A program made the position numbers and the translations under genes. Positions 242-59,168 of a stretch of 64,000 nucleotides of DNA are shown here, one piece after another. The notes beneath the pieces were generated by a model. That model saw only the letters and a program-made list of their open reading frames with translations. It searched no databases and was not told where the DNA came from. The first letter of the stretch is position 1, and the number at the start of each line of letters is the position of its first letter. This DNA is from Geothrix sp. (GTDB lineage: Bacteria; Acidobacteriota; Holophagae; Holophagales; Holophagaceae): assembly GCA_030681515.1 (NCBI GenBank), contig JAUXSE010000047.1, forward strand, positions 1-64,000, written 5' to 3'.

Positions 242-1030
242 ATGTCCTCTCCCATCCGCTTCGAGATCCGCGACCGCATCGCCACGCTGACGCTGGACCG
301 GCCGGACAAGCTGAATGCGCTGGTGCCGGAGATGCGCGAGGGCTTTGATGAGGCCCTGGCGAAGGCGGCCGGGCCAGGCGTGAAGGCGCTACTGCTGCGG
401 GGAGTGGGACGGGCCTTCTGCGCGGGGGGCGACATCGGCTGGATGGCGAAGGCACTGGCCGAAGGCCGCTGGGACGAGATGGAAGCCCTGCTGGATCTGG
501 GCGTCGCCGTCGCTCACGGGTTGGCCACGCTCCCCAAGCCCGTGGTGGCCGTGATCCAGGGACCGGCGGCCGGCGCCGGCATGAGCCTGGCCCTCTGCGC
601 GGATCTGCGGATCGCCACCAGTGAGGCCCTGTTCGGCATGGCCTTCGTGAAGCTCGGCCTGCATCCCGATTGGGGCGGCAGCGTCATGCTATCGCGCCTG
701 GTGAATCCGGCCATCGCGGGGGAACTGATGCTGCTCGGCGATACCTTGGATGCGGCCCGGGCCCAGGCCCTGGGTCTCGTGAATCAGATCGTGCCCGCGG
801 ATCGCCTGGAGGCCGCCGTCGAAACCCTCAGCCACCGCCTCGCCGCCGGGCCCGCCGAGACCTTCGCCCGCATCAAGACCACCCTGCTGCGTAACCAGGG
901 CCTGGACGCCGGAAGCCTCCGCGCCCGCCTCGAAGCCGAAGGCGCCCAGATGAAGGCCGCCATGCGCCACCCCGATGCGAAGGAGGGCCTGGCCGCCTTC
1001 CTGGAGAAGCGGGCGCCGAGGTTCGCCTGA
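242..1030 (+). CDS. Enoyl-CoA hydratase/isomerase family protein (PaaG-like crotonase)
   Basis: 262 residues, the usual crotonase length. The CoA/oxyanion-hole segments are clear: RAFCAGGDIGWM and GPAAGAGMSLALCADLR. At the position of the two catalytic glutamates of true hydratases it reads AFVKLGLHPDWGGS, so the first Glu is missing and an Asp is present. That pattern is typical of PaaG and other enoyl-CoA isomerases rather than hydratases. It therefore probably moves a double bond or opens an epoxide on an acyl-CoA in fatty-acid or aromatic degradation; the substrate is unknown. The start at 242 is preferred over an in-frame ATG at 167 because TTGGAG lies 5-6 bases upstream and the extra segment would be encoded by repeat DNA. 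Confidence 0.88.
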   Translation: MSSPIRFEIRDRIATLTLDRPDKLNALVPEMREGFDEALAKAAGPGVKALLLRGVGRAFCAGGDIGWMAKALAEGRWDEMEALLDLGVAVAHGLATLPKPVVAVIQGPAAGAGMSLALCADLRIATSEALFGMAFVKLGLHPDWGGSVMLSRLVNPAIAGELMLLGDTLDAARAQALGLVNQIVPADRLEAAVETLSHRLAAGPAETFARIKTTLLRNQGLDAGSLRARLEAEGAQMKAAMRHPDAKEGLAAFLEKRAPRFA

Positions 1031-1379
1031 AAGCAGGGACAGGATTTACAGAATGAAATGCTGGATTAACAGGATTACCTAATTATCCGCGAGACTCAGC
1101 CATCACTTTTCAAGATCAAAAGCTGAAACCACAGATGACGGTGCCCACACCTGCGAAGCACCCACCAGAACAGTCCAGCGATTCGTGCATTTAATCTGTG
1201 TGAATCGGTGGAATCTGTGGATCCACGGTCCTTTCTGCGACATCTGCGGTTGAACGATTTCAAGGCTGAGCGTGGCCGACAATCAGGCAGGATTAAAGCC
1301 CAAAAAACAAGATCTGTCTTTGACGTTTTAATCCTGTTAATCCTTCAAATCCTGTTAATCCTGTCTCCGCTTTTCAGGC
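1026..1379. repeat. Nested double inverted repeat filling a convergent gap
   Basis: The 343-bp gap between two convergent genes holds no gene. Outer arms are 1026-1077 and about 1326-1379: both contain AACAGGATTA words and both end in CTGAAAGC / GCTTTTCAG, so they include the stop codons of the two flanking genes. Inner arms are 1119-1140 (AAAGCTGAAACCACAGATGA) and 1191-1252 (ATCTGTG, AATCTGTGG, ATCTGCGG). The word units are about 9 bp and imperfect. I infer a bidirectional 3'-end structure. Confidence 0.8.
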
Positions 1380-1682
1380 CTTCGGGAAGGCCCGGCTTTG
1401 CGCGGCTTCGATGAGCTCCTTGATGCGGCGGGCGTCGGCCTTGCTGTGGCCATGGCTGGTGAGGGGATCGCTGCCGCCGGTGCTCTCGACGAGGATGTCG
1501 GCCCAGAGCAGGCCCGTGTCGATGCGGACACTGGCCACCTTGGAGAGGTGGATGCTGATCTCGTTCACTGTGAACCAGGACCGCTTGCGGCGGATGACCG
1601 CGGCATCCGTGACCTCGATGACGGTCGAGAACAGGTGGTTGCCCTTGGTCCAGCGGCTGGTGTGAAACGTCTCGGTGGCCAT
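1374..1682 (-). CDS. Small PH-domain-like protein of unknown function
   Basis: 102 residues, cytoplasmic, no signal peptide. The pattern of short beta segments (LFSTVIEVTDAAVIRRKRSW, then VNEISIHLSKVASVRI) followed by a C-terminal helix (DARRIKELIEAAQS) resembles bacterial PH-like domains, which often read 'converts to a membrane or protein-binding patch'. That is a fold-level guess. Its ATG (1682-1680) overlaps the TGA of the upstream transketolase subunit by one base, so the two are probably translationally coupled. Its stop codon lies inside the outer arm of the convergent-gap repeat. Confidence 0.65.
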   Translation of the reverse strand: MATETFHTSRWTKGNHLFSTVIEVTDAAVIRRKRSWFTVNEISIHLSKVASVRIDTGLLWADILVESTGGSDPLTSHGHSKADARRIKELIEAAQSRAFPKA

Positions 1683-2650
1683 CAGAGAGCCTCCTTCGCG
1701 GCGGCGGCGACGGCCTGGGGCGTGATGCCGTAGGCCTCCAGCAGTTTCTCGGGCTTGCCGCTCTGGCCGAACAGATCCTGCACGCCCACGCGGCGGACGG
1801 GCATGGGATGGGCCTCGGACAGGATCTCCGCCACGATGCCGCCCAGGCCGCCATGGGCCTGGTGCTCCTCGCAGGTGACGACGGCCTTGTGGGCCTTCGC
1901 CAGTGAAATCAGGGTTTCGCGATCGAAGGGTTTGAGGGTGGGCGCGTGCAGCACCGTGGCCTCGATGCCATCCGCCGCCAGCAGCTCTGCAGCGTCGAGG
2001 CAGATGGAGGTGCCCAGGCCGCAGCCCACCAGCAGCACGTCGTGGCCCTCCCGCATCATCACGGCCTTGCCGATCTGGAACTTGTAGTCCGAACCATGGA
2101 TGCGGGGGAACTTGTCGCGGGTGAGGCGGACATAGACCGGGCCCTGGTGGGCATAGGCGGCGCGCACGGCCTGCCTGGTCTCCAGGGCGTCGGCCGGTGA
2201 GAGCACCGTCATGCCGGGGATCATGCGCATGAGGGCCAGATCCTCCAGGCACTGGTGGGTGCCGCCATCCTCGCCCACGGTGAGCCCCGCGTGGGTGGCC
2301 ACGATCTTCACGTTCTGGCGGCCCACGCCCACGGCCTGGCGCACGAACTCGTAGGCCCGCCCCGTGGCGAACATGGCGAAGGTGCTGACGAAGGGCACCA
2401 CGCCCGTGGTGGCGGCCCCGGCGGCGGCGGCCATCATGCCCTGTTCCGCGGCGCCCATGTTGAAGAACCGCTCCGGGAAGGCCTTGGCGAACTTGCTGGT
2501 GCGGGTGGAACCGGCCAGATCCGCGTCGAACACGATGAGGTTGGCGCCCTCGTTCCCCAGCTCCACCAGGGTGTCGCCGTAGGCATCCCGCAGGCTGTCC
2601 ATGACGCCGCCCACCTTGCCGCCCACGCCCGCCGTTTCCATGCCCGCCAT
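1682..2650 (-). CDS. Transketolase, C-terminal subunit (split enzyme)
   Basis: 322 residues carrying the pyrimidine-binding and C-terminal transketolase domains only. The catalytic Glu sits in FNMGAAEQGMMAAAAG, followed by the family segment THAGLTVGEDGGTHQ; the C-terminal domain has APTLKPFD. Split transketolases usually have the N-terminal (diphosphate-binding) half as the adjacent upstream gene. Here the upstream neighbour is the divergent hrpB, so the partner must be elsewhere or absent. Known role: transfer of two-carbon ketol units in the pentose phosphate pathway, with thiamine diphosphate bound between the two halves. Start ATG at 2650, with AAGGAGAT upstream. Confidence 0.93.
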   Translation of the reverse strand: MAGMETAGVGGKVGGVMDSLRDAYGDTLVELGNEGANLIVFDADLAGSTRTSKFAKAFPERFFNMGAAEQGMMAAAAGAATTGVVPFVSTFAMFATGRAYEFVRQAVGVGRQNVKIVATHAGLTVGEDGGTHQCLEDLALMRMIPGMTVLSPADALETRQAVRAAYAHQGPVYVRLTRDKFPRIHGSDYKFQIGKAVMMREGHDVLLVGCGLGTSICLDAAELLAADGIEATVLHAPTLKPFDRETLISLAKAHKAVVTCEEHQAHGGLGGIVAEILSEAHPMPVRRVGVQDLFGQSGKPEKLLEAYGITPQAVAAAAKEAL

Positions 2651-2687
2651 ATGATCTCCTTGGAGGTTTCATTCTACGCGAAGGAGG

Positions 2688-2709
2688 GGCGCCGCCGCCC
2701 TGCGGCGCC
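2688..2709. promoter_or_regulatory. Hairpin in the divergent tktC/hrpB region
   Basis: GGCGCCGC and GCGGCGCC form a perfect 8-bp stem around a 6-base loop. It lies between the starts of two divergent genes (108 bp apart), within the leader of the transketolase gene or upstream of hrpB. Function is unknown; it is not followed by a T run on either strand. Confidence 0.4.
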
Positions 2710-2758
2710 GATAGCGGGATCGCCAGAGGCGACCCCGCGGGTCCGGTAGTCTGAATGG

Positions 2759-5227
2759 ATGCGTGTACCTCTTCCTATTGATCCCCTGCTGCCGCAGATC
2801 ATCGAGAGCCTGCGCGGGAACCCGAACCTAGTGTTGCAGGCGGATCCCGGGGCGGGCAAGACCACGCGCGTGCCTCCGGCCCTGCTGGAGGCGGGCCTGC
2901 TGGGGGACGGCGAATGCTGGATCCTGGAGCCCCGCCGCCTCGCCGCCCGGCTGGCCGCCACCCGGGTGGCGGACGAGCTGGGTGAGGCCCTGGGCCAGCG
3001 GGCGGGCTACGCCGTGCGCTTCGAGCAGAAGGTCTCGAAGGGCACGCGGCTGCGCTTCGTCACCGAGGGACTGCTGCTGCGCCGCCTGCACGGCGATCCC
3101 CGGCTGGGCGGCATCGCCGCCGTGGTCCTGGACGAATTCCACGAACGACACCTGCACACGGACCTCGGTATCACGCTGCTGCGCCGCCTCCAGCGCGGGG
3201 CTCGGCCCGATTTGAAACTCCTGGTCATGTCCGCCACGCTGGATCCCGGCCCCGTGGCCGCCTACCTCGACGCCCCCGTGATGAAGAGCGAGGGCCGGGT
3301 CTTCCCGGTGGATACAGCCTTCCTGTCCCGCCCGGATGATCGGCCCGTCGAACAGCAGGTGGCCGACGCCCTGGACCGCCTCTACAACGAGGGACTGCGC
3401 GGCCACACGCTGGTCTTCCTGCCGGGGGCCGCCGAGATCCGCGCCTGCCTGAAGGGTTGCGAGGCGGTGGCGATCCGGCGGGGCCTGAGCCTGCGGCCCC
3501 TGCACGGCGAACTATCGCCGGATGCCCAGGCTCACGCCCTGGCACTCAGCGACACGCCCAAGGTCATCCTCAGCACCAACGTGGCCGAGAGTTCCGTCAC
3601 CCTCGATGGCATCGGAGCCGTGGTGGATTCGGGGCTGGGCCGCGAGGCCTCCCATTCGCCCTGGTCGGGCCTGTCGGGCCTGCGCACGGTGCGCATCAGC
3701 CGGGCCCGCTGCGTGCAGCGCACGGGCCGCGCGGGCCGCACGGGGCCGGGCCGCTGCCTGCGCCTCTACACCGAGGCCGACTTCGGGGCCCGTCCCGCCT
3801 TCGACACGCCGGAGCTGCAGCGGTCGGATCTCGCGGAATCCGTCCTGAGCCTCCACGGCATGGGCATCGCCGGACCCGGTGCCCTGGACTGGTTCGAGGC
3901 GCCACCCGCCGCTTCCCTGGCCGCCGCGGAGGCCCTGCTCACGCGCCTCGGCGCCCTGGAGAACGGAAGCCTCAGCGCCATCGGCCGTCGCATGGCGGAG
4001 CTGCCCCTGCATCCGCGCCTGACCCGGCTGGCGGTGGCGGGCCAGGACTTCGGCATTCCCCAAACGGCCCTGCGGGCTGCGGCCCTGCTGGAGACCGGCA
4101 ACCTCTCGGCGCGCCAGGGCCTGGACCGGGCACCTCTGAAAACGGGCCACGGCGCGGATTCGGATCTGCTGCTGCGCCTGGATCAGTTCGAGGAGGCGCA
4201 GGCCGCGGGTTTCGGTGCCAGCGCCTGCCGGGCCGCGGGGCTGGACGCCTTCGCCGTCCAGCGGGCGCGGCGGGCGGTGCCATCGCTCGCCCGGTTCCTG
4301 CCCTCCCCCGCCGAGCCCGCGGATGCGGAGGCTCGCCTGCTGAAGGCCCTGCTCCGGGCCTATCCGGATCGCGTGGGCCAGCTCTCCGCCAACGGCACCT
4401 GCGCCTTCGCCGGAGGCGGCGGAGCCAAGCTGGACCCCGCCAGCCGCGTGCGGCGACCGGGGCTGATCCTCGCCCTGGAAGCCGACGCCGTGAAGCAGGG
4501 CACCGGGGGGCAGACGCTCATCCGCCTGGCCTCCCGCTGCGAGGGGGACTGGCTGCTGGAGGCCTTTCCGGAACGCCTGGAGGATGTGGACGAGGTGGCC
4601 TTCAACGCCTCGGCGGGCCGGGTGGAACGGCGGTCCGAGATCCGCTATGAAGGGTTGAGCCTCGACGTCAGCCGGGGTCCCGCGGATCCTGCGGATCCGC
4701 GCGTGGCTCACCTGCTGGCGCAGGCCTTGCGGGAGCGCCCATTGGATGAGCTGCCCGCACGGTTCCTGGCGCGGCTGGCGTTCCTCCGCAGGCATCGGCC
4801 GGAGCTTGGTCTGCCGGAGGATCTGCTGGGCCCCCTGCTGGCCGGGGCCTGCGCGGGGCGGACGACCCTGCGCGAGGTGCAGGAGGTGGACTGGTCCGCG
4901 GCCCTGCGGCAGGCCTTCCCGGCCGAAACGCTGCGCCTCTTGGACGCCTGGGCGCCCGAGGCCATCCAGCTGCCCAAGGGCCGCCCCACGAAGATCCACT
5001 ACGAGGACGATCCCCCCTGGATCGCCTCCCGGCTCCAGGAGTTCTGGGGCCTGAAGAAGTCCCCCACCGTGGCCGGGGGCGCCGTGCCCCTGGTGCTGCA
5101 CCTGCTGGCCCCCAATATGCGGGCCGTGCAGGTCACCACCGACCTCGCGGGCTTCTGGCAGCGGGTCTACCAGGAGCTGCGACCGGGGCTGTCGCGGCGG
5201 TATCCGAAGCATCATTGGCCGGAGTGA
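2759..5227 (+). CDS. hrpB: ATP-dependent RNA helicase HrpB
   Basis: 822 residues, the usual HrpB length. DEAH-type helicase motifs appear in order: Walker A in QADPGAGKTTRVPP (about residue 29), DEFHERH as motif II (about 126), SATLD as motif III, TNVAESSVTLDG as motif V (about 277) and QRTGRAGRTGPG as motif VI (about 320). The helicase-associated and HrpB C-terminal domains follow, ending in the RRYPKHHWPE tail typical of the family. Its cellular role is not settled in most bacteria. ATG at 2759. The downstream GNAT gene follows after 17 bp and is probably co-transcribed. Confidence 0.95.
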   Translation: MRVPLPIDPLLPQIIESLRGNPNLVLQADPGAGKTTRVPPALLEAGLLGDGECWILEPRRLAARLAATRVADELGEALGQRAGYAVRFEQKVSKGTRLRFVTEGLLLRRLHGDPRLGGIAAVVLDEFHERHLHTDLGITLLRRLQRGARPDLKLLVMSATLDPGPVAAYLDAPVMKSEGRVFPVDTAFLSRPDDRPVEQQVADALDRLYNEGLRGHTLVFLPGAAEIRACLKGCEAVAIRRGLSLRPLHGELSPDAQAHALALSDTPKVILSTNVAESSVTLDGIGAVVDSGLGREASHSPWSGLSGLRTVRISRARCVQRTGRAGRTGPGRCLRLYTEADFGARPAFDTPELQRSDLAESVLSLHGMGIAGPGALDWFEAPPAASLAAAEALLTRLGALENGSLSAIGRRMAELPLHPRLTRLAVAGQDFGIPQTALRAAALLETGNLSARQGLDRAPLKTGHGADSDLLLRLDQFEEAQAAGFGASACRAAGLDAFAVQRARRAVPSLARFLPSPAEPADAEARLLKALLRAYPDRVGQLSANGTCAFAGGGGAKLDPASRVRRPGLILALEADAVKQGTGGQTLIRLASRCEGDWLLEAFPERLEDVDEVAFNASAGRVERRSEIRYEGLSLDVSRGPADPADPRVAHLLAQALRERPLDELPARFLARLAFLRRHRPELGLPEDLLGPLLAGACAGRTTLREVQEVDWSAALRQAFPAETLRLLDAWAPEAIQLPKGRPTKIHYEDDPPWIASRLQEFWGLKKSPTVAGGAVPLVLHLLAPNMRAVQVTTDLAGFWQRVYQELRPGLSRRYPKHHWPE

Positions 5228-5244
5228 GGCGCTACCCTTTCCCC

Positions 5245-5730: not shown

Positions 5731-5754
5731 AAGCCCATCCCGGAATCATTGCTT

Positions 5755-5868
5755 TTCTCACTGTTCCTCACCGTTTCTCACCGGTTTATTTCTTGTTTCT
5801 TTCTCTGTGGTGCCTCTTCCCAAGAAAAGAAAGGCCAACCGGTGAGGAACAGTGAGAAACGGTGAGAA
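5755..5868. repeat. CTCACCGTTC word-array inverted repeat (family C, copy 1)
   Basis: The left arm (5755-5786) is three imperfect 10-bp units based on CTCACCGTTC, ending in ACCGGT. The right arm (5837-5868) is its complement, ACCGGTGAGGAACAGTGAG and on. The AT-rich loop is about 50 bp. A second copy of the same family, with a 13-base loop, lies at 42251-42330 inside a gene. The 210-bp gap between the GNAT gene and acpS contains nothing else that I can recognise. Confidence 0.85.
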
Positions 5869-5940
5869 GGACAACAACCTTGTCTCCGTGGTGAATCAGT
5901 TATTCGCTCCCCGGTGCCTCAGTTCGGTCTGGAGCCTGAA

Positions 5941-6309: not shown

Positions 6310-6365
6310 GGATCGGAAACTCAAGCCCTGGCCCCCGGCGCCGATCCCGGAGACAGGACGACTCC

Positions 6366-14817: not shown

Positions 14818-14845
14818 GAGTTGGCGGTCAATCAGGGATAAAAGC

Positions 14846-15013
14846 GCTGGTCACGGAAGACACGGAAGAAAGCTGGAAACCACGGAACACTGCATAGGCG
14901 CCCGCTTCAACAGCACGGGCCTCATCCCCGGGGGCGCCGATGGCGGGCCCGTGCGGCGATGGCCACGGCCCCTTCTGCGTCTTCCGTGGAATTCCGTGTC
15001 TTCTGTGACCAGC
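14846..15013. repeat. CACGGAAGA word-array inverted repeat in a convergent gap
   Basis: Left arm 14846-14890: GCTGGT, two CACGGAAGA units, then AAAGCTGGAAACCACGGAAC. Right arm 14973-15013: GCGTCTTCCGTGGAATTCCG and on to GACCAGC, complementary to the left. It fills the 222-bp gap between the hybrid kinase and lpxD, which face each other. The interior (about 80 bp) has a GGCCCGTGC/GCACGGGCC-type stem and no gene. Confidence 0.82.
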
Positions 15014-15039
15014 CATTTCTTCAAGGGTGGCCCGGAGGC

Positions 15040-16041: not shown

Positions 16042-16055
16042 GGAGGCTCCTCAGC

Positions 16056-16094
16056 AGTCTTCAGTCTTCAGTCTTCAGTCTTCAGTTTCCAGTC
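16056..16094. repeat. AGTCTTC heptamer array between lpxD and lgt
   Basis: Four perfect head-to-tail copies of AGTCTTC (16056-16083) are followed by a fifth degenerate copy, AGTTTCC (16084-16090), and AGTC. The array fills most of the 71-bp gap between two divergent starts, so it lies in the promoter/leader space of both genes. Unlike the convergent-gap arrays it has no complementary arm. Confidence 0.9.
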
Positions 16095-29910: not shown

Positions 29911-29949
29911 TGACCTACCCGCTTATCGGCTTGCCTCAGCCTGAAAAGC

Positions 29950-30197
29950 CCACCACGAATGCCACGAAGACGCCCTGTGGGCGCACGAAAGGCCACAAAG
30001 GGGCGCCGACCCAACAAGGCCATCCCTTTGCGGGCGGCGACCAGGACGGCTTCTGGGGGCCGCCGGTGTCGCCGCCCGCAAAGCCGGTCGCGTTTTTCGC
30101 GACCGGGGGCCGAAGGCCCGGATGACCCGCATCGACGCGCTGGGGCCTACCTTCGTGTCCTTCCTTCAGTCATTCGTGTCCTTCGTGGAGGCCTTGA
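29950..30197. repeat. CACGAAGG word-array inverted repeat in a convergent gap
   Basis: The 333-bp gap between ggt and the HD-GYP gene (convergent) has no gene. Left arm about 29950-30004: ACCACGAATGCCACGAAGAC with further CACGAAAGG. Right arm 30150-30192: CTTCGTGTCCTTCC, then ATTCGTGTCCTTCGTGGAGG, units of about 9 bp. The middle (30005-30130) has a GGGCGGCGAC...GTCGCCGCCC stem. The same word is used in the compact element at 49265-49316. Confidence 0.82.
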
Positions 30198-30243
30198 AGG
30201 CCCTTCGATCAGGCTGAGGCTCACCGACAAGAAACAGGACTGG

Positions 30244-40240: not shown

Positions 40241-43200
40241 ATGCCCCTGACGCTTCCCGCTTTCATCGCCCGCTGGCAGGCCGCGAACGGCCCCGAGCGG
40301 GGCAACATGCAGCTCTTCCTCCAGGAGCTGACCCAGGTGCTGGGGCTGCCCACCCCCGAGCCCACGGGCCCCGCCAGCGGGTACTGTTTCGAGAAGCAGG
40401 TGCCGAACTATTCGCCCGAGGGCAAGTTCACCAAGAACTACATGGATCTCTACAAGGCCGGGTGCTTCATCCTGGAAGCCAAGCGCACACCGGATGCCCT
40501 GCGGGCGAAAAGCGGACCCGGCACCGGCGCGGGCGGCGGGGGCGCCGCAGGTGGCAAGGGCGGCAGGCGGCCCACGGTCCACGCGCCGTCATTGCCCGGC
40601 CTGGTGGAAGAACCCCGCGTCGAGGGCTACCGTGCCCACGCCACCTACGATGCCCGGCTCGAAACGGCCTTCATCCAGGGCATCCGCTACGCCATGGCCC
40701 TGGGCTTCCAAGGGCCCCCGCCGCCATTCCTCATCGTGTGCGACATCGGCCACAGCTTCCACCTCTGGAACCGCTACGACCCCAGGGCCGGGGGCGGGTA
40801 CGGCGGCTTCGGCGCCCGGCGCACCATCCTGCTCGACGAGCTGGAACGGCCGGAGATCCAACAGCTGTTCCGCGATATCTGGACGAACCCCGCGGCCCTC
40901 GACACCAGCCGCCGCATCGCCTCGGTGACCCGGGGCATCGCCGAAGAGCTGGGCGGCCTCGCCATGGAACTGCGCAGCACCACGCGAAGCAAAGAAGAAA
41001 TCGCGCACTTCCTCATGCGCTGCGTCTTCACCTGCTTCGCCGAGGATATCAACCTGCTGCCGGGCAAGCCCTTCTCCGAGGGCCTGCGCCAACTGGAAAA
41101 GGATCCCGGCCAGGCCGTGGCCTTCCTCCAGGACTGGTGGAAGGTCATGGACGAGGGCGGCAAGTGGGGCTGGCAACGCGTCCTGCGCTTCAATGGAACG
41201 CTGTTCAAGGATCTCTCCGTGCCGCCCCTTTCCCAGCGGCAGCTCGCCCTGCTGCGCATGGCCGCCGAAAAGGACTGGCAGGAAGTGGAACCCGCCATCT
41301 TCGGCACCCTGCTGGAAAGCGCCCTGGACGAGGACGAGCGCCACCGCCTGGGCGCCCACTACACCCCCCGGGCCTACATCCAGCGGCTGGTGGACGCCAC
41401 CTTCGGCCAGACCCTGCGCGAGCGCTGGACGGCCATCGAGGCCGATCTCGCCCGGTTGCTGGAGCCGGGCCATGGGCCGGGCGCCGTGACGGAAGCCAAG
41501 GCGAAGCTGCACGCCTTCCACGGCGAGCTGGCCTCGCTGACCTTCCTCGATCCCGCCTGTGGCAGCGGCAACTTCCTCTACGTGGCCTTCGACACGCTCA
41601 AGCGGCTCGAAGGCGAGGTCCTGCAGCGCCTGGAGGACCTGGGCGAAGGGTTCTCGGCCTTCGATCTGTCCCACGAGATCATCTCCCCGGCCCAGTTCAG
41701 GGGCATCGAGCTGGATCCCTGGGCCGCGGGCATCGCCGAGCTGGTGCTATGGATCGCGCACCTGCAGTGGTTCCGCCGCCGCCACCCGGCGGGCGATCCC
41801 CCCGAGCCCGTGCTGCAGAACTACGGCAGCATCGCGCAGCGCGACGCGGTGCTGGCCTGGGATGACGAAGAAGGCACCGGCGCCAGCCGCTGGGATGGCA
41901 AGACCTTCAAGACCGATGCCCGGGGCCGCGAGGTGCCCGATGGCCGCGCCCAGGTGGCCTCCACCCGGCTGCTGAATCCCCGGCCCGCGACCTGGCCCCA
42001 GGCGGACTACATCATCGGCAACCCGCCCTTCCTGGGCAACGCCTCGATGCTCGGCGACCTGGGCGTGGGCTACACGGAAGCCCTGCGCGCCGCCTATCCC
42101 GACGTGCCCGATACCGTGGACTTCGTCCTCTACTGGTGGCACCGGGCCGCGCTGGAAGTGCGGACCGGCCGCGCCCGCCGCTTCGGCCTCATCACCACCA
42201 ACAGCCTGCGCCAGGTGCGCCAGCGCGGCGTGCTGGCCCACCATTGCTCCGTTCCTCTCACCGTTCCTCACCGTTCCTCACCGGTGAAAAAGAAAAGGAC
42301 CGGTGAGGAACGGGGAGAAACGGTGAGAAAGCATGAGGGGCTGTCGCCGCTCAAATTGCTCTGGGCCATTGCCGATCATCCCTGGCAGGGCGGCGCGGCG
42401 GTGCGCATCGCCATGACCGTGGGCGGGCTAGAGGGTCCGCCGGTGCTGGCGCGCGTCACCGCTGAATCCCGGATGCCCGATCCCGAACACGCCGCCGAAG
42501 GCCTGGTGATCGAGGAATTCCCCGTGGACCGCATCCATGAGGACTTGAGCGGTGGTGCTCGCGTGGCAGGCGCCGTGGCCCTGAAGGCCAACGATGGCCT
42601 TTGCTCGCCGGGCATGAAGCTCCACGGCAACGGTTTCATCGTCACGCCTGAGCAATGGAAGGACTGGGGGCGGCCCAACCTGGTGCATCCCTATCGCAAC
42701 GGCCGCGACCTCACGGATCAGCCCCGGAATGTCATGGTCATTGATCTCTACGGGCTGACGGAAGAACAGGTCCGCAAGTCGTACCCGGCGATCTACCAGC
42801 ACCTGCTCCAGACCGTGAAGCCCGAGCGGGAACAGAACAATCGTGCGGTCTATCGGGATCTCTGGTGGATCTTCGGCGAACCGCGGTCATCGCTTCGCCC
42901 CGCATTGAAGGGCCTGCCCCGCTACATCGCCACCGTGGAAACCGCCAAGCACCGCGTCTTCCAGTTCCTCGACGGCGCCACGGTGCCCGACAACATGATC
43001 ATCGCCATCGCCAGCGCCGATGCCTATCATCTGGGCGTCCTCAGCAGCCGCATCCATGTCGTCTGGGCCTTGGCGGCAGGCGGGTTGTTGGAAGACCGTC
43101 CCCGCTACAACAAGACCCGCTGCTTCGATCCCTTCCCGTTCCCGGATGCATCGAAGGCCCAGGCCGCCCACATCCGTGACCTGGCCGAAGAGCTGGACCA

Positions 43201-43504
43201 GCACCGCAAGCGGGCACAGGAATCAGGCCTGGGCCTCACGGCCCAGTACAACCTGCTGGAACGCCTGCGCGGCGGCGAGGCGCTCACGGACCAGGAGCAG
43301 GCGCTGGACACCAAGGGGCTGGTGAGCCTGCTCCTCGACCTGCACCGGAAGCTGGACGCCACCGTGGCCCAGGCCTACGGCTGGCCCGAGGATCTCTCCG
43401 ACGCCGTCATCCTGGAACGCCTGGTGGCCCTCAACCACGAACGCGCCGCTGAAGAGGCCCAAGGCCGGATCCGCTGGCTGCGACCCGAGTACCAGGCCAG
43501 GTGA
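40241..43504 (+). CDS. MmeI-type (type IIL) restriction-modification enzyme with an in-frame repeat insertion
   Basis: 1087 residues. The N-terminal nuclease motif is D69-x9-E79-A-K81, the same D-x9-ExK spacing described for MmeI. The methyltransferase has motif I LDPACGSGNFLYVAF (about 437) and motif IV IIGNPPFLGN (about 593, NPPF), followed by a C-terminal target-recognition region and helical end. One protein should cut and methylate. At residues about 670-697 the usual short link between GLITTNSLRQ-type and IADHPW-type blocks is lengthened by SVPLTVPHRSSPVKKKRTGE and more, encoded entirely by a word-array palindrome. The frame stays open, so activity may survive. No separate methylase or protection gene is adjacent. 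Confidence 0.88.
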   Translation: MPLTLPAFIARWQAANGPERGNMQLFLQELTQVLGLPTPEPTGPASGYCFEKQVPNYSPEGKFTKNYMDLYKAGCFILEAKRTPDALRAKSGPGTGAGGGGAAGGKGGRRPTVHAPSLPGLVEEPRVEGYRAHATYDARLETAFIQGIRYAMALGFQGPPPPFLIVCDIGHSFHLWNRYDPRAGGGYGGFGARRTILLDELERPEIQQLFRDIWTNPAALDTSRRIASVTRGIAEELGGLAMELRSTTRSKEEIAHFLMRCVFTCFAEDINLLPGKPFSEGLRQLEKDPGQAVAFLQDWWKVMDEGGKWGWQRVLRFNGTLFKDLSVPPLSQRQLALLRMAAEKDWQEVEPAIFGTLLESALDEDERHRLGAHYTPRAYIQRLVDATFGQTLRERWTAIEADLARLLEPGHGPGAVTEAKAKLHAFHGELASLTFLDPACGSGNFLYVAFDTLKRLEGEVLQRLEDLGEGFSAFDLSHEIISPAQFRGIELDPWAAGIAELVLWIAHLQWFRRRHPAGDPPEPVLQNYGSIAQRDAVLAWDDEEGTGASRWDGKTFKTDARGREVPDGRAQVASTRLLNPRPATWPQADYIIGNPPFLGNASMLGDLGVGYTEALRAAYPDVPDTVDFVLYWWHRAALEVRTGRARRFGLITTNSLRQVRQRGVLAHHCSVPLTVPHRSSPVKKKRTGEERGETVRKHEGLSPLKLLWAIADHPWQGGAAVRIAMTVGGLEGPPVLARVTAESRMPDPEHAAEGLVIEEFPVDRIHEDLSGGARVAGAVALKANDGLCSPGMKLHGNGFIVTPEQWKDWGRPNLVHPYRNGRDLTDQPRNVMVIDLYGLTEEQVRKSYPAIYQHLLQTVKPEREQNNRAVYRDLWWIFGEPRSSLRPALKGLPRYIATVETAKHRVFQFLDGATVPDNMIIAIASADAYHLGVLSSRIHVVWALAAGGLLEDRPRYNKTRCFDPFPFPDASKAQAAHIRDLAEELDQHRKRAQESGLGLTAQYNLLERLRGGEALTDQEQALDTKGLVSLLLDLHRKLDATVAQAYGWPEDLSDAVILERLVALNHERAAEEAQGRIRWLRPEYQAR
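42251..42330. repeat. CTCACCGTTC word-array palindrome inside a coding sequence (family C, copy 2)
   Basis: Left arm 42251-42285 has CTCACCGTTC units ending in ACCGGT; right arm 42299-42330 is complementary (ACCGGTGAGGAACGGGGAGA); loop of 13 bases rich in A. Same family as 5755-5868. It adds about 27 codons without a stop or frameshift to the MmeI-like enzyme. Confidence 0.88.
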
Positions 43505-43570
43505 TCGGCTAGGCAGGTCGCTCGAACAGCGGAACTCAGCGCTCACCGGCGAAAGACAAAACCCTTTGCA

Positions 43571-43890
43571 ACCACCGATGAACACCGATGAACACCGATG
43601 AACTCCGATAAAGCCATGCCTGGTTTTCGGGGAACCTCAGCCCAACCCTTTTCAATACAAAAAGCTGGAACCACAGATTCCACAGAATTCACAGATTCGG
43701 CGCCGCCCCAACGCGCATGGGCCCGCCAAAGGCGGCTTCCGGCCTCGCCGGAAGTGATCCCAGGGGCTCCTGCATCGCGTCCCAAAAAGCGCGGGTCAGG
43801 CGCCCCCGGGATACAGCCCATGCTTCCGAAGCGGACGATCCAAGCTTGATCGGTGTTCATCAGCTTTGATCGGTGTTCATCGGTGTTAAG
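43571..43890. repeat. ACACCGATGA word-array inverted repeat in a convergent gap
   Basis: The 411-bp gap (43505-43915) holds no gene. Left arm 43571-43612: three to four 10-bp CACCGATGAA units. Right arm 43844-43890: GATCGGTGTTCATC twice and CATCGGTGTT. Between them, 43661-43700 is a second array, AAAGCTGGAACCACAGATTC followed by CACAGAATTCACAGATT, without a matching right arm that I can find. The remaining interior has no clear structure. Confidence 0.85.
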
Positions 43891-43915
43891 CCCTTTTCTT
43901 TGAGCCCAAAGAAAG

Positions 43916-49251: not shown

Positions 49252-49264
49252 AGTTCCATCCAGA

Positions 49265-49316
49265 CGAAAAGACCTCCACGAAGGACATCTTCGTGTCCTT
49301 CGTGGAGATCTTTTCC
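49265..49316. terminator. Compact CACGAAGGA palindrome in a convergent gap
   Basis: Arms 49265-49287 (CGAAAAGACCTCCACGAAGG, then ACA) and 49294-49316 are complementary over 23 bases with two mismatches and a 6-base loop. It lies between the stops of the second MFS gene and the SDR gene (72-bp gap) and is the only structure there, so a bidirectional terminator is a reasonable reading. Same word family as 29950-30197. Confidence 0.72.
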
Positions 49317-49323
49317 TGGAATT

Positions 49324-52774: not shown

Positions 52775-52940
52775 CCGGAAGAGAACGAACCTGCCCGCGG
52801 GTCGCGAGCGGACGCGCCTAGATGGCGCGTCCCGAGCGGGGCCCCGCTGGTTGGTTCAAACGCACGCGTGGGCCGAGTCCATCGGCAGAATCCAGCAGGG
52901 CAACTGACCGGAAAGAAGCGAACTTCCGCGCGGGTCGCGG
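52758..52940. repeat. Imperfect direct duplication of the acyl-CoA dehydrogenase 3' end
   Basis: 52758-52807 (the last codons, stop and 33 bp of flank) reappears at 52891-52940 with about eight differences in 50 bp; both contain CAACTGACCGGAA and GCGGGTCGCG. Between the copies lies the GGGTC-hairpin-GGGGCCCC element (52797-52847) and GTTGGTTCAAACGCACGCGT. No gene in the gap. The pattern resembles the duplicated tRNA end at 37.6-37.8 kb. Confidence 0.8.
52797..52847. terminator. GGGTC-hairpin-GGGGCCCC element after the acyl-CoA dehydrogenase (copy 2)
   Basis: GCGGGTC, then GGACGCGCC-TAGAT-GGCGCGTCC (perfect 9-bp core, longer with mismatches), then GGGGCCCCGC. The TAGAT loop and both flanks match the element after accC, although the stem sequence is unrelated. 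It lies in a convergent gap. Confidence 0.78.
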
Positions 52941-52944
52941 CTCC

Positions 52945-54003: not shown

Positions 54004-54082
54004 GGGAGGCTCCCGACACAACATAGGTCTACGGACAGGGAATTCAAACGATTATGCGATGCTTGTGGAATCCGGGGAAACC

Positions 54083-55003: not shown

Positions 55004-55135
55004 GGCCCGCCACCGCAAGGACGGGTGGGCGGTCTCGCAGGGGGACGCTAAGCTGGACTCCGGCGTGGTCATGACCTCCCTGCGGCGGGTCGGGTTCCCG
55101 CTATCCTGATCCACACCCCGATTCCTGGAGCCACC

Positions 55136-56191
55136 TTGCGAAGCGTCATCACTGGAACCGGCATCGGCGTGCCCCCGCATGTCATCACGAATGAGGCCCT
55201 GTCCAGGCTCATGGACACCTCGGACGAGTGGATCCGCGTGCGCAGCGGCATCCAGGAGCGCCGCTATGCGGAGCTGGGCCAGGGCTCCACGGACCTGGGC
55301 GTGATCGCCAGCCGGAATGCCATCGCCGATGCGGGGCTGGCGCCCGGAGACATGGACGCGGTCATCTTCGCCACCATGACCCCGGATCATGTGCTGCCGG
55401 GAAACGGCCCCCTGCTCCAGACGGCCCTGGGCCTGGGGGACATCCCCACCTTCGACATCCGCCAGCAGTGCAGCGGTTTCCTCTATGGCCTGGAACTGGC
55501 GGATCTGTTCATCCAGAGTGGCCGCTACCGGCGCGTCCTGCTGGTGGGCGCCGAGGTCCACACCGCCTTCATGCCCTGGCACCTGGGCTGGGACACCCTC
55601 ATCGGCCAGTCCACGCGGGAGATCACCGAAGCCGAACGCGCCGAGAACACCCTGAGCCGGGACCGGACGGTGCTCTTCGGCGATGGCGCGGGCGCCGTGG
55701 TGATCGAGGCCCGGGAGGGCGAGGCCGGCCTGGGGACCATCCGCCTCCACACGGATGGCGCCGGCGCGGGGGTGCTGACCATGACGGGCGCTAGCTTCAA
55801 GCGGCGGCCCTTCGTGACGGTGGAACAGATCCAGGCGGGCGAGACCGTCCCCGTCATGTCCGGCAAGGAGGTCTTCAAGTCCGCGGTGACGCTGATGCCG
55901 CAGTCCGTCCGCGAAGTCTGCGCAGCCTCGGGACTGGCCGTGGAGGACCTGGACCTGGTGCTGGTCCACCAGGCCAACCTGAGGATCATCGAGGGCGTGC
56001 AGAAGGCCCTGGGCCTGCCGCCGGAGAAGGTGCCTCACAACATCGAGCGCTACGGCAACACCACCGCCGCCACCCTGCCCATCCTCTTCCATGAGTGCCG
56101 CCAGCAGGGCCTCGTCCGCCCCGGCATGAACCTCGTGTTCACGGCGCTGGGATCCGGCCTCCACTGGGGGGCGGCGCTGTACCGGACCTGA
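55136..56191 (+). CDS. 3-oxoacyl-[acyl-carrier-protein] synthase III (FabH-like)
   Basis: 351 residues, thiolase fold. Catalytic C112 in FDIRQQCSGFLYGLEL, His in LDLVLVHQANLRIIEG and Asn in YGNTTAATLPILF. It is longer than E. coli FabH because of an insertion after HTAFMPWHLGWDT (about 150-180). It may start fatty-acid chains or make a special ketone/lipid. TTG start at 55136, with CTGGAG upstream. The ATG of DUF819 follows after 41 bp. Confidence 0.88.
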   Translation: MRSVITGTGIGVPPHVITNEALSRLMDTSDEWIRVRSGIQERRYAELGQGSTDLGVIASRNAIADAGLAPGDMDAVIFATMTPDHVLPGNGPLLQTALGLGDIPTFDIRQQCSGFLYGLELADLFIQSGRYRRVLLVGAEVHTAFMPWHLGWDTLIGQSTREITEAERAENTLSRDRTVLFGDGAGAVVIEAREGEAGLGTIRLHTDGAGAGVLTMTGASFKRRPFVTVEQIQAGETVPVMSGKEVFKSAVTLMPQSVREVCAASGLAVEDLDLVLVHQANLRIIEGVQKALGLPPEKVPHNIERYGNTTAATLPILFHECRQQGLVRPGMNLVFTALGSGLHWGAALYRT

Positions 56192-56232
56192 CCCGAAGCC
56201 GCCATCGGACCGAACCCTGCCGAGGAGCCGCC

Positions 56233-57435
56233 ATGACGCTCATCCAGCCCGAGGACACCTGGTCGCTCTGGGCCTTCCTGTTCGCGTGGGCAGCCGTCAG
56301 CATCCACCTCGAGCAGCGCTACAAGTGGGCCTCGGCTGTCTCAGGCTGCATCCTGGCGCTTGGTGGCGGATTGCTGTTCGCCAACCTGGGGGTCGTGCCC
56401 ACGGCGAGTCCCGTCTATGACAGCGTCTGGACCTACGTGGTCCCCATGGCGGTGCCCCTTCTGCTCTTCACGGCTGATATCCGCAAGATCTGGCGGGAGA
56501 GCGGCCGAATGCTCGGGGCCTTCCACATCTCGGCCTTCGGGACGGTCCTGGGAACCATTCTCGCCACCGCGCTGCTGGGCCGGAGGATCCCCGAAATCGG
56601 CGGGATCTCGGCCATGTTCTCTGGAAGCTACATCGGCGGGAGCGTCAACTACGTGGCCATGTCCGAGGCGTTCCGGGTCTCCCCCGGCCTCATCAATGCC
56701 GGTCTCGTGGCCGACAACCTGCTGATGGCCCTTTTCTTCGGTTTGCTCACGGCACTGCCGGGGGTGGCGTTCATCCGGCGCCGGTTCCGGACGCCATTGC
56801 TCGACCAGCAGGAAACCCTGAAGGGATCATCCGCGGAAAATCCCGCCGCCAGCTACTGGGGCCGGAGCGAGGTCTCGCTCAAGGATCTTTCCGCCGCGCT
56901 GGCCTGCTCCATCCTCATTGTCACCGTTTCGATCAAACTCGCAGGCGCCATTGGGGCCAGTGGTCTTCCACCCTTCCTGAAGGGCCTCATCGGCCAGAAA
57001 TACCTCCTGATCACCGCCCTGACCGTTGGCCTCGCCTCGGCCTTCCCCCGCTTCTTTTCGAACATCCGGGGCGCCCGGGAGATCGGAACGCTCCTCATCT
57101 ACTTGTTCTTCGTGGTGATCGGCGTGCCCGCCTCGATATCGAGCGTCGTGCGCGAGAGCCCGATCCTCCTGGCCTATGCGGCCATCATCCTGGCGGTCAA
57201 TCTGCTCGTCACGCTGGTACTCGGCAAGCTGACCGGCCATGACCTGGAAGTGCTGCTCGTGGCCTCCAACGCCAACGTCGGCGGCCCCACGACCGCCGCG
57301 GCCATGGCCATCGGCAAGGGCTGGAATGAACTGGTCCTGCCGGCGATCCTCACCGGTGTCTGGGGCTACGTCATCGCCAACTACATCGGCTACTACATCG
57401 GCGTGAACGTGCGGGCCCTTTTCGGTGGGTCCTGA
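56233..57435 (+). CDS. DUF819-family membrane protein
   Basis: 400 residues with about ten membrane segments. Family blocks: VPMAVPLLLFTADIRKIWRE, FSGSYIGGSVNYVAMSEAF and LLVASNANVGGPTTAAAMAI, which make a symmetrical pair of broken helices typical of carboxylate or dicarboxylate-type transporters. No substrate is known. ATG 56233 with GAGGAG upstream. A short gap of 121 bp to the next gene holds a promoter. Confidence 0.9.
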   Translation: MTLIQPEDTWSLWAFLFAWAAVSIHLEQRYKWASAVSGCILALGGGLLFANLGVVPTASPVYDSVWTYVVPMAVPLLLFTADIRKIWRESGRMLGAFHISAFGTVLGTILATALLGRRIPEIGGISAMFSGSYIGGSVNYVAMSEAFRVSPGLINAGLVADNLLMALFFGLLTALPGVAFIRRRFRTPLLDQQETLKGSSAENPAASYWGRSEVSLKDLSAALACSILIVTVSIKLAGAIGASGLPPFLKGLIGQKYLLITALTVGLASAFPRFFSNIRGAREIGTLLIYLFFVVIGVPASISSVVRESPILLAYAAIILAVNLLVTLVLGKLTGHDLEVLLVASNANVGGPTTAAAMAIGKGWNELVLPAILTGVWGYVIANYIGYYIGVNVRALFGGS

Positions 57436-57503
57436 TGGACTGAAACCGCCGTCCCCCGGGCCAGTCAGGGTCGCCACGGCATGCGCGGGGAGCCTTGGAC
57501 CGG

Positions 57504-57533
57504 TTGCGGGAAGGAGCAGGACATGTCTAGAAT
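57504..57533 (+). promoter_or_regulatory. Putative promoter of the small exported protein
   Basis: TTGCGG (57504-57509), an 18-base spacer, TAGAAT (57528-57533). The -10 is close to consensus. The ATG lies 23 bases after it with GGGAG in between, so the transcript would have a short leader. Prediction only. Confidence 0.45.
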
Positions 57534-57556
57534 GCGGGCACACTTTGGGAGTAATT

Positions 57557-57913
57557 ATGCGATCCCGCCATCTGGCCCTTGGACTTGCCTTGTCGCTGGT
57601 CCCCGCCCTTGTCCTTTCGGCCGGAACCACCAAATCCCGGAAACAGGCCTCAGGTGCCGTGAAAACCGCGGGGGATGCCAAGGCCATCGCCGAGCGGGAG
57701 ACTGGCGGCAAGGCCATCACGGCCCGGCGCATCCCCCTCAACGGTGCCTCCGGCGGGTGGGAGGTGGAGCTGCGGATGCCCCACGACGAAAAGGGCTGGC
57801 GCTGCGTCATTGACGCGGATACCCGCACGGTCCACACCAAGACCCGTATTGACCAGCCCGGCGCCAAGGGCAGGGCGGAGGGGCCGGTGCGCATGATCAA
57901 GGGGACGCGCTGA
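57557..57913 (+). CDS. Small exported protein, PepSY-like
   Basis: 118 residues. Signal peptide RSRHLALGLALSLVPALVLS. The mature part reads AKAIAERETGGKAITARRIP, then GWEVELRMPHDEKGWRCVID and DTRTVHTKTRIDQ, a PepSY-like pattern of helix and strands with a final basic tail. PepSY domains are often inhibitors or membrane-linked modules. Assignment is moderate. ATG 57557 with GGGAG upstream. Confidence 0.7.
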   Translation: MRSRHLALGLALSLVPALVLSAGTTKSRKQASGAVKTAGDAKAIAERETGGKAITARRIPLNGASGGWEVELRMPHDEKGWRCVIDADTRTVHTKTRIDQPGAKGRAEGPVRMIKGTR

Positions 57914-57975
57914 AGGCGGCTGCCCGATCCACCGTGACCGTTCGCCGGTTTTTCCCGCCGGACACCCTGCCCGGC

Positions 57976-58003
57976 TTGACAGCCCGGCCTAGAATCGTAC
58001 CTG
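57976..58003 (+). promoter_or_regulatory. Possible promoter of the SPFH gene
   Basis: TTGACA (57976-57981) matches the -35 consensus exactly. A TACCTG lies after a 16-base spacer (57998-58003) and is a poor -10; a better hexamer, TAGAAT, is only 8 bases away and so too close. Weak overall. Confidence 0.3.
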
Positions 58004-58030
58004 TGGCCGGTGCCACTAGGAGAACGACAC

Positions 58031-59077
58031 ATGGGTCTGATGGACTGGGGCAAAGCCCAATTCCTCGACATCCTCGAATGGCTGGATGATTCCAATGACA
58101 CGCTGGCCTGGCGCTTCCCCATGCGGGGCCAGGAGATCCAGACCGGTGGCCAGCTGGTGGTGCGCGAAAGCCAGGAGGCGGTCTTCATCAACGAAGGCCA
58201 GCTGGCGGACGTGTTCAAGCCCGGCACCCACCGGCTGACCACCCAGAACCTGCCGATCCTCGCCACCCTGAAGGGCTGGAAATTCGGGTTCGAAAGCCCC
58301 TTCAAGAGCGATGTCTACTTCATCTCCACCAGGCTCTACAACGACCTGAAGTGGGGCACTTCCAACCCGATCATGATGCGCGATGCCGATTTCGGCATGT
58401 TGCGCATCCGGGCCTTCGGCATCTACTCCATCAAGGTGGTGGACAGCGGCACCTTCCTCAAGCAGCTCGTCGGCACCAACGGCGTCTACACCGTGCCCGA
58501 CATCTCCGAGCAGCTGCGCAAGACCATCATGAGCCGCTTCACGGACGCCCTGGGCGAGGCCAAGATCCCCGCCCTGGACCTGGCCGCGAAGTACGACGAG
58601 ATCTCGGACTTCGTGAAGCAGAAGCTCCAGGACGAGTTCAAGACCATGGGCCTGGAGCTCTCCAAGTTCTTCGTGGAGAACATCAGCCTCCCCGAGGAAG
58701 TGGAAGCCATGATGGACAAGCGCACCGGCGTGGGCATGATGGCCCCCGTCATGGGCGCCTACACGCAGATGCAGGTGGCGGATGCCATCCCCCTCGCGGC
58801 AGCGAACCCCGGCGGCGTCGCCGGCATGGGCATGGGCGTGGGCCTGGGCTTCGGCATGGGCAACATGATGGGCCAGCAGATGGCCGGCGCCTCCCAGCAG
58901 ATGGGCCAGCAGTCCTTCCCCGCCGGCGCTGCCGCCGCCCCGGCCGCGGCCCCCGCGAAGTCGCTCAAGGAGGACTTGACCGATCTCAAGGAGCTCTTCG
59001 ACGGCCAGCTCATCACCCAGGCCGAGTACGACACGCAGCGCGCCGCCATCATGAAGAAGAACGGGATGGGGAATTAG
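58031..59077 (+). CDS. SPFH domain protein with C-terminal SHOCT motif
   Basis: 348 residues. N-terminal part reads QLVVRESQEAVFINEGQLAD and GTHRLTTQNLPILATLKGWK, as in the SPFH/YdjI 'virion core' family, with a helical region at about 190-230. A Gly/Met/Ala-rich linker (about 255-300; GMGMGVGLGFGMGNMMGQQM) precedes a SHOCT motif (LKELFDGQLITQAEYDTQRA). Possible role in membrane microdomain scaffolding or envelope stress; not shown. ATG 58031 with AGGAG eight bases upstream. Confidence 0.88.
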   Translation: MGLMDWGKAQFLDILEWLDDSNDTLAWRFPMRGQEIQTGGQLVVRESQEAVFINEGQLADVFKPGTHRLTTQNLPILATLKGWKFGFESPFKSDVYFISTRLYNDLKWGTSNPIMMRDADFGMLRIRAFGIYSIKVVDSGTFLKQLVGTNGVYTVPDISEQLRKTIMSRFTDALGEAKIPALDLAAKYDEISDFVKQKLQDEFKTMGLELSKFFVENISLPEEVEAMMDKRTGVGMMAPVMGAYTQMQVADAIPLAAANPGGVAGMGMGVGLGFGMGNMMGQQMAGASQQMGQQSFPAGAAAAPAAAPAKSLKEDLTDLKELFDGQLITQAEYDTQRAAIMKKNGMGN

Positions 59078-59079
59078 GC

Positions 59080-59168
59080 TTCAGGCTCTAGGCTCCGGGC
59101 TTCAAGAAAGGGCGGCGCAGCCGCCCTTTTTGCGTTTACTGAGGCCTGGAGCCTGAAGCCCGGAGCCT
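59080..59168. terminator. Heptamer-array palindrome with an internal terminator hairpin
   Basis: Left arm 59080-59106: four 7-bp units (GGCTTCA, GGCTCTA, GGCTCCG, GGCTTCA). Right arm 59142-59169: TGGAGCC, TGAAGCC, CGGAGCC, TAG. Between them AAGGGCGGC-GCA-GCCGCCCTTTTT is a standard intrinsic terminator for the plus-strand SPFH gene. The element fills the convergent gap to the CDF gene. Confidence 0.85.

What the first reader, a model, noticed from the sequence alone, without database searches (positions are those of the whole stretch)
1026..59168. Every roomy convergent gap holds a word-array palindrome, each with its own word
Seven gaps between convergent genes are at least 50 bp. Six (1031-1373, 14818-15039, 29911-30243, 43505-43915, 49252-49323, 59078-59166) contain an inverted repeat built from imperfect tandem copies of a 7, 9 or 10-bp word: AACAGGATT, CACGGAAGA, CACGAAGG, ACACCGATGA, CACGAAGGA, GGCTTCA. 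The seventh (52775-52944) has a different conserved hairpin. The two convergent pairs without such a gap have only 12 bp or overlapping ends. The constant part is architecture and location; the word itself varies. I infer a class of bidirectional terminators or nucleoid/replication-type marks that spreads by copying arms, not by transposition. I do not know a name for it.
Basis: partly seen in the sequence, partly recalled or inferred. Interest (0 to 1): 0.85.

Follow-up and report, generated by a model that had tools for sequence, protein, structure and literature searches.

The report
Nuclease-linked word-array palindromes between genes
The repeated palindromes between these bacterial genes look like gene-less copies of a small, apparently mobile piece of DNA whose full version carries a little-studied nuclease gene, and the same pairing of gene and repeat turns up in many other bacterial groups.

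Summary
The six palindromes are real, but neither confined to convergent gaps nor unique. In a 741-kb sample of the genome their words recur in tandem, convergent and, less often, divergent gaps. In congeners two of the same gene pairs mostly (nearly) abut: those gaps are roomy because something was inserted. One palindrome sits in frame inside a window gene (about 42,249-42,330), missing from three of four aligned orthologues.
The arms belong to a unit that also carries a GxxExxY gene (TIGR04256/PF13366, predicted PD-(D/E)XK nuclease). Of 110 such genus genes with full flanks, 94 lie between inverted arms (score 16), 80 of those arm pairs with a clear 7-12 bp period; 0 of 59 displaced controls and 0 of 200 other genes do. 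From a scan across phyla 53 of 79 do (0 of 140 controls). Word and nuclease lineage change together (Mantel r = 0.69, 0 of 2000 permutations). Five of seven window gaps match particular nuclease clades; four of those five have a matching gene in this genome.
Best reading: gene-less copies of an apparently undescribed family of putatively mobile elements, working like REPIN-RAYT with an unrelated nuclease. Mobility and word recognition are inferred, not shown.

The parts
1037..1076 (+). left arm, word AACAGGATT (GxxExxY clade of L361/L379/L385)
   Evidence: score 27.5 to the L385 arm; best of 20 shuffles 11
1326..1373 (-). right arm of the same element
   Evidence: L361 21.0, L379 19.0
1202..1251 (-). 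nested arms with words CACAGATT (L267 clade) and CGCAGATG (L380 clade) inside the AACAGGATT palindrome
   Evidence: scores 18.5 and 18.0
14841..14889 (+). left arm, word CACGGAAGA (GxxExxY clade of L041/L383)
   Evidence: one search score 26 against shuffle maximum 12.5
14972..15018 (-). right arm, CACGGAAGA
29946..29969 (+). left arm, word CACGAAGG (degenerate)
   Evidence: 12.5, equal to the shuffle maximum, so not significant by itself
30026..30120 (.). GC-rich three-hairpin core, second sequence type ('core B'), between the arms; end approximate
   Evidence: fold; inspection
30151..30195 (-). right arm, CACGAAGGA (GxxExxY clade of L280/L362)
   Evidence: score 19 against 12.5
42249..42330 (.). 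word-array palindrome (CACCGTTCCT, L397-type), ends approximate, in frame in an MmeI-like type IIG restriction-modification gene (40241-43504); orthologues without it are 28-29 codons shorter here
   Evidence: absent from L153, L154, L155, present in L158; gene identity
43570..43612 (+). left arm, word CACCGATGAA (GxxExxY clade of L265/L374/L405)
43671..43697 (+). nested single arm, word CACAGATT (L267 clade)
   Evidence: score 22
43714..43823 (-). three-hairpin core A copy
   Evidence: E 2.8e-14; structure and covariation
43846..43887 (-). right arm, CACCGATGAA
49266..49287 (+). left arm, CTCCACGAAGGACA (L280/L362 clade)
49289..49315 (-). right arm
   Evidence: score 22 against 10.5
132..232 (.). 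further AACAGGATT-type palindrome, not in the finding
5754..5901 (.). CACCGTTCCT-type palindrome in a tandem gap, not in the finding
59078..59166 (.). heptamer (GGCTTCA) arms round a GGGCGGC/GCCGCCC hairpin that most congeners share; not matched to GxxExxY arms
   Evidence: (inspection)

Best explanation
The word-array palindromes are gene-less members of a family of small interspersed elements whose full form is [array of an 8-10 bp word] - GxxExxY nuclease gene - [inverted array of the same word]. SHOWN: inverted arms flank the nuclease gene in most genus copies examined and in about two thirds of those kept from a scan across phyla; the word follows the nuclease lineage; gene-less copies of the same words lie mainly in gene gaps; some orthologous sites exist with and without the element. 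INFERRED: the elements multiply by a cut, copy or repair process in which the PD-(D/E)XK nuclease acts on its own arrays; gene-less copies are moved in trans or are deletion products; they survive mainly at gene 3' edges, because little else is tolerated in a compact genome. Any terminator effect is secondary.
For: (1) Linkage in the genus: PF13366 search of 37 genomes gave 132 matches; 113 loci examined, 110 with full flanks, inverted arms at score 16 or more in 94 (13 or more in 100). The same loci with the gene position shifted by 800 bp: 0 of 59 (2 of 59 at 13). Other genes of 330-800 bp in the sample: 0 of 200 (5 of 200 at 13). Of the 94 arm pairs 80 show 7-12 bp periodicity beyond their own shuffles (p <= 0.05); three of the other 14 (L363, L119, L120) are core hairpins, not word arrays. 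(2) Linkage across phyla: 80 loci kept from one capped genome-contig scan, 79 with full flanks, 53 at 16 or more (64 at 13) against 0 (8) of 140 displaced controls; 50 of the 53 periodic. (3) Word tracks protein: Mantel r = 0.69, n = 91 (the 94 less those three), 0 of 2000 permutations; r = 0.45 across phyla, n = 53, 0 of 2000. (4) Five of seven window gaps match arms of particular clades beyond shuffles; this genome carries GxxExxY genes with arms of the same words for gaps 1,031, 14,818, 29,911 and 49,252 (L361, L041, L362). (5) Filled and empty sites: gap 14,818 is 0 bp in 9 of 14 orthologous pairs and holds differently worded palindromes in four genomes; gap 29,911 is -4 to 32 bp in 17 of 17 congeners with the pair. 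Between hpt and lptE 9 of 28 usable loci hold the gene. In-frame insert in the MmeI-like gene. (6) In the 741-kb sample the pairs that join one word have short gene-less loops or a GxxExxY interior of about 400 bp; pairs enclosing other genes join different words (by inspection; one such pair read). (7) D63, E73, K75, Q87 each conserved in 190-192 of 192 proteins; AlphaFold2 pLDDT 95.6.
Against: No transposition was observed. No target-site duplication: 7 of 94 show a direct repeat of 4 bp or more at the arms, as expected by chance (7.6). 10 of 110 genus genes and 15 of 79 others lack detectable arms even at 13; of six loci of an LCDQ/LCDR-type clade four lack them. Arms of L041 and L383, the clade of gap 14,818, are not significantly periodic by the shuffle test. 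Eight genomes without a clade-7 gene among the fetched loci still hold 10-32 copies of its word (19 of 132 gene matches were not examined, and a partial gene lies near such an arm in G020). Nothing shows that the nuclease binds its word; linkage alone would produce co-phylogeny. Fold matches are weak (no Foldseek E at or below 0.001; best VIA Z 9.3). Gap 43,505 had no informative orthologue; gaps 52,775 and 59,078 show no match to these arms.
Confidence: 0.78

Rival explanations
1. The arrays are bidirectional terminators or gene insulators under selection, made in place; the nuclease gene is incidental.
For: 3'-side bias in tandem gaps; large hairpins; gap 59,078 keeps a GGCGGC/GCCGCC-type hairpin in most of 29 pairs (inspection).
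Against: In-frame copy inside a coding gene; copies in divergent gaps and between hpt and lptE; for gaps 14,818, 29,911 and 49,252 many congeners have the same convergent pair with no or almost no gap; inverted arms flank one gene family across phyla.
Confidence: 0.08
2. The arms are a mobile element but GxxExxY is only cargo or a resident; an unlinked transposase (for example a RAYT) moves them.
For: No target-site duplication and no direct proof of nuclease action; word copies occur in genomes without a detected matching gene.
Against: In the sample the only gene I recognised between same-word arms is GxxExxY; word and nuclease lineage stay coupled; active site conserved. RAYT genes were not searched for.
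Confidence: 0.14
3. Arrays grow in place by slippage and template switching at tiny palindromes such as the abutting stops TGATCA.
For: Empty convergent sites at gap 14,818 are tiny palindromes (TGA|TCA); imperfect tandem words.
Against: The same long words occur at tens of places in some genomes, and related words beside the same gene family across phyla.
Confidence: 0.03

Closest known systems
REP / REPIN-RAYT systems (PMC3733652: abstract and outline seen; PMC3116915, PMC2817692, PMC8266576: listings with the start of the abstract only)
   Same: A solitary gene flanked by the repeat plus many gene-less palindromic copies; per the PMC3733652 abstract REPs lie mainly between unidirectional and convergent genes, downstream of coding regions, and some lie inside genes.
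   Different: The gene is a predicted PD-(D/E)XK nuclease of the GxxExxY family, not a tyrosine transposase; no GTAG tag (1 of 94); arms are arrays of a clade-specific 8-10 bp word instead of one 20-40 bp palindrome.
MITEs of DNA transposons (recalled)
   Same: Short gene-less copies with inverted ends of an autonomous element.
   Different: No transposase seen between the arms, no target-site duplication detected, ends are word arrays.
Homing endonuclease elements (recalled)
   Same: A stand-alone nuclease gene as cargo.
   Different: Many sites, palindromic arrays, many gene-less copies, empty sites without the word.
GxxExxY protein family TIGR04256 / PF13366 PDDEXK_3
   Same: The gene inside the arms is a member.
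   Different: Only 3 papers of the held library contain the names; I saw one passage of PMC8934634, which mentions a GxxExxY gene beside a reverse transcriptase and no arrays; the other two were seen as listings only.

Membership tests
GxxExxY / PDDEXK_3 (TIGR04256, PF13366), for the gene | profile score over the curated cut-off | tested here: met
   4 of 4 proteins 128.6-153.2 bits against cut-off 35; PF13366 148.7 against 22
GxxExxY / PDDEXK_3 (TIGR04256, PF13366), for the gene | PD-(D/E)XK residues D, E-x-K conserved | tested here: met
   D63 192/192, E73 190/192, K75 191/192
GxxExxY / PDDEXK_3 (TIGR04256, PF13366), for the gene | nuclease activity | not testable with these tools
   needs biochemistry
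REP / REPIN-RAYT | GTAG (or CGTC) tag at one end of the palindrome | tested here: not met
   GTAG only: 1 of 94 elements; CGTC not tested
REP / REPIN-RAYT | flanked gene is a tyrosine transposase | tested here: not met
   the flanked gene tested here is TIGR04256/PF13366
REP / REPIN-RAYT | RAYT encoded elsewhere in the genome | not tested
   no search was made
MITE of a DDE transposon | target-site duplication | tested here: not met
   7 of 94 against 7.6 expected from random pairs; short, degenerate or distant duplications could be missed
Intrinsic bidirectional terminators | confined to transcript 3' ends | tested here: not met
   in-frame copy in a gene; 6 of 69 divergent gaps
Intrinsic bidirectional terminators | RNA 3' ends at the hairpin | not testable with these tools
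   needs Term-seq
Known RNA families (Rfam 15) | match over the gathering score | tested here: not met
   only a tRNA in the window

The most novel reading that the evidence does not exclude
A widespread, undescribed class of mobile DNA in which each GxxExxY nuclease lineage recognises its own short word, keeps arrays of that word as inverted ends, and spreads or overwrites arrays in trans, so that nuclease and word co-evolve and the same genomic site is re-occupied or rewritten with different words in different species (gap 14,818; gap 49,252; the insert in the MmeI-like gene, whose two arms differ together between G000 and G010). Transposition- or conversion-driven turnover of gene 3' boundaries would then be a major shaper of compact genomes.
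Probability: 0.4. Interest if true: 0.95.

Novelty: categorically new. Interest (0 to 1): 0.85.

Why it matters
It would tie an abundant kind of intergenic repeat to a gene family that has almost no literature in the library searched, give a cross-phylum prediction (find the word, find its nuclease), and turn GxxExxY from a name into a testable nuclease with a predicted DNA substrate. It would also explain why some convergent gaps are wide although the same genes abut in relatives. 'Categorically new' is meant for membership: each named repeat or element family considered failed at least one tested feature, apart from homing elements, which were not tested. The working principle resembles REPIN-RAYT.

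Tried and rejected
Convergent-gap specificity: rejected; with the window left out convergent gaps (5 of 28) are no richer than tandem ones (30 of 175). Rfam: only a tRNA in the window. Retron-like reading of the three-hairpin core (small, medium and long hairpin inside a closing stem): dropped as recalled resemblance; no reverse transcriptase was searched for. The core has covariation (15 of 41 pairs with both sides changed in 25 copies), but DNA-level palindrome correction would give the same pattern. Integron-like cassette array in G006/G025: the spaced copies lie in successive gaps between genes, with a GxxExxY gene between two of them. Solved relatives by sequence: one chain, E 0.53, taken as chance. 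PADLOC: no hit for the three GxxExxY proteins given. Fold search: a family absent from the VIA list is not excluded. Literature: ten searches. No listing pointed to GxxExxY elements or these words; one search listed one paper holding CACGAAGACACGAAG, by its title an eDNA study of fishes, not opened; one search listed a paper on heptameric repeats (PMC4692102), not opened. The library lacks most subscription papers and all preprints, so absence is weak evidence. The random-gene control failed and was run.
Full report
WHAT IS IN THE WINDOW. The window is C27:1-64000 of a 3.2-Mb, 66-contig genome. A home-made dicodon gene caller gave 564 genes and 76 convergent, 75 divergent and 396 tandem neighbour pairs; starts are less certain than stops, and some genes are surely missed (coding fraction 0.82 over the sample). 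The seven roomy convergent gaps exist as described, and six hold inverted arms.

NOT ONLY CONVERGENT, NOT ONE WORD PER SITE. Tandem arrays of 7-12 bp words are five to ten times denser between genes than inside them, with none in shuffles of the gaps. GGTCACGGAAGACACGG occurs 45 times at up to 2 mismatches, including 13 plus-then-minus pairs 64-494 bp apart. Arm-like sites (score 17 or more) number 152 in the sample, 20 of them in called genes. By gap class (50-800 bp, score 16): 10 of 35 convergent, 31 of 191 tandem, 6 of 69 divergent; 7 of 300 coding segments; dinucleotide-shuffled gaps 0, 3 and 0.

ANATOMY. Many copies have a core of three GC-rich hairpins in a closing stem, inside one or more layers of word arrays. 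Core A has about 28 places in this genome (30 listed matches, some overlapping); the 30 listed copies sit in 23 tandem, 6 convergent and 1 divergent gaps. It was found in 24 of 36 congeners and in none of 23 more distant genomes. Its cloverleaf shows 15 of 41 pairs with changes on both sides. Words are mixed and nested: window 43,505-43,915 has a CACCGATGAA palindrome enclosing one CACAGATT arm and core A.

THE GAPS WERE OPENED. I took orthologous convergent pairs from up to 36 congeners. Gap 14,818: in 9 of 14 pairs the stops abut exactly (TGA|TCA); G000, G036, G019 and G004 hold palindromes with CACGGAAGA, CGCGGAAGG, CACAAAGG-like and CGCGAAAGA words, and G028 has 408 bp without a clear array (by inspection). 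Gap 29,911: 17 of 17 congeners have -4 to 32 bp, G000 has 333 bp. Gap 49,252: 9 of 24 pairs have -4 to 1 bp; several others hold differently worded palindromes, and five have 448 bp or more that is largely other sequence. Gap 59,078: all 29 pairs have 42-139 bp, with a GGCGGC/GCCGCC-type hairpin in most and heptamer arms in some. Gap 43,505: none of six loci tested had the orthologous neighbour. Gaps 1,031 and 52,775 were not compared. A further site speaks against a pure terminator role: a CACCGTTCCT palindrome in frame inside the MmeI-like gene at about 42,249-42,330. Three of the four orthologues that I aligned across it lack 28-29 codons there; G010 has an insert with both arms changed to CACCGTTCAT. 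G010 is the most distant of the four in protein identity, so shared ancestry with losses, independent insertion and gene mosaicism are all open.

THE NUCLEASE. One CACGGAAGA copy (L041) encloses an ORF that scores as GxxExxY, TIGR04256. A PF13366 search of 37 genus genomes gave 132 matches. I examined 113 (19 were not examined, mostly weak, partial or contig-edge): of 110 with full flanks, 94 lie between inverted arms at score 16 or more (100 at 13), against 0 (2) of 59 displaced controls and 0 (5) of 200 other genes. Of the 94 pairs, 80 are periodic beyond shuffles; three of the rest are core hairpins. By record titles the positives at 16 cover 12 bacterial phyla, as I assign them, and one archaeon (L350, whose ORF has a stop); another archaeon (L284) and a cyanobacterium (L302) lack arms. 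The query came from nine genus proteins, so this is not a census.

WORD FOLLOWS NUCLEASE. Arm similarity rises with protein identity: at most 2% of pairs under 45% identity have similar arms, 84% of pairs at 70-85% do; Mantel r = 0.69, n = 91, 0 of 2000 permutations; r = 0.57 with only pairs under 80% identity. Examples: AACAGGATT with GRVIGAAMRVHS; CACGGAAGA with LTEAVIGAAIRVQRALG; CTCCACGAAGGACACGAAG with DEVFAIVGAAIEVHRALG. This shows that gene and arms are inherited as one unit; it does not show recognition. Five of seven window gaps match such arms beyond shuffles. For four of the five this genome has a GxxExxY gene with the same word (L361, L041, L362); for 43,505 the matching genes found are in congeners. 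Genomes with a clade-7 gene carry more GACAGGATTAACAGGATT (6-34 copies, n = 7) than the others (0-32, median 1.5, n = 30; p = 0.0006), but eight of those others hold 10 or more.

SITES OF THE GENE-BEARING FORM. Between hpt and lptE, 9 of 28 usable congener loci carry the gene; arms were detected (13 or more) in the seven whose arms I could test, starting within about 15 bp of the hpt stop. Others have hpt and lptE overlapping or nearly abutting, or a stretch resembling one right arm, clearest in G004 (partly by inspection). No target-site duplication and no GTAG tag. The predicted fold is confident. Its best structural neighbour is SSO0001 (Z 9.3, rmsd 3.2, 95 residues), which I recall as a Cas4 nuclease; the archaeal Holliday-junction resolvase Hjc (Z 7.0, rmsd 3.0, 82 residues) and restriction enzymes follow, in a range where chance arrangements also score.

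MECHANISM. Shown: one unit of gene and arms, clade-specific words, many gene-less copies, filled and empty sites. Inferred: a DNA break or nick by the nuclease at its arrays, followed by copying or repair, spreads gene-bearing and gene-less forms; selection leaves them at gene 3' edges. The nested words suggest insertion into older palindromes or rewriting of them; neither was tested. That the genome is a Geothrix-like Holophagaceae is recalled impression, not a result.

VERDICT.

Noticed in passing
window about 42249-42330: In-frame word-array palindrome inside an MmeI-like type IIG restriction-modification gene; absent from three of four aligned orthologues, present in G010 with a changed word on both arms.
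   Followed up: partly
L012:1105-1458; L023:13300-13572; similar sequence in the G008 gap of L178: A different GC-rich repeat whose outer arms are copy-specific palindromes (AGATCTCATATCAAA..., GGGCTCCTAATTAAA...), as if it had entered pre-existing hairpins.
   Followed up: no
window 16055-16093 and 59078-59166; L010:5505-5591; L014:7401-7525: Heptamer arrays (CCTGAAG, CAGTCTT, GCTATCA), sometimes as arms round a terminator-like hairpin; the one tested (59078-59166) has no match to GxxExxY arms.
   Followed up: partly
L400, L426, L436, L439 against L432, L437: An LCDQ/LCDR-type GxxExxY clade: four of six loci without detectable arms; the other two have CACAAAGAA arms.
   Followed up: no
L119, L120 (G006, G025): Core A copies lie in several successive gene gaps of what looks like the same neighbourhood in two species, one in opposite orientation, with a GxxExxY gene between two copies.
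   Followed up: partly
L441, hpt-lptE junction: In G000 the right arm appears to supply the start of the lptE-like reading frame (start as called by my own gene caller).
   Followed up: partly
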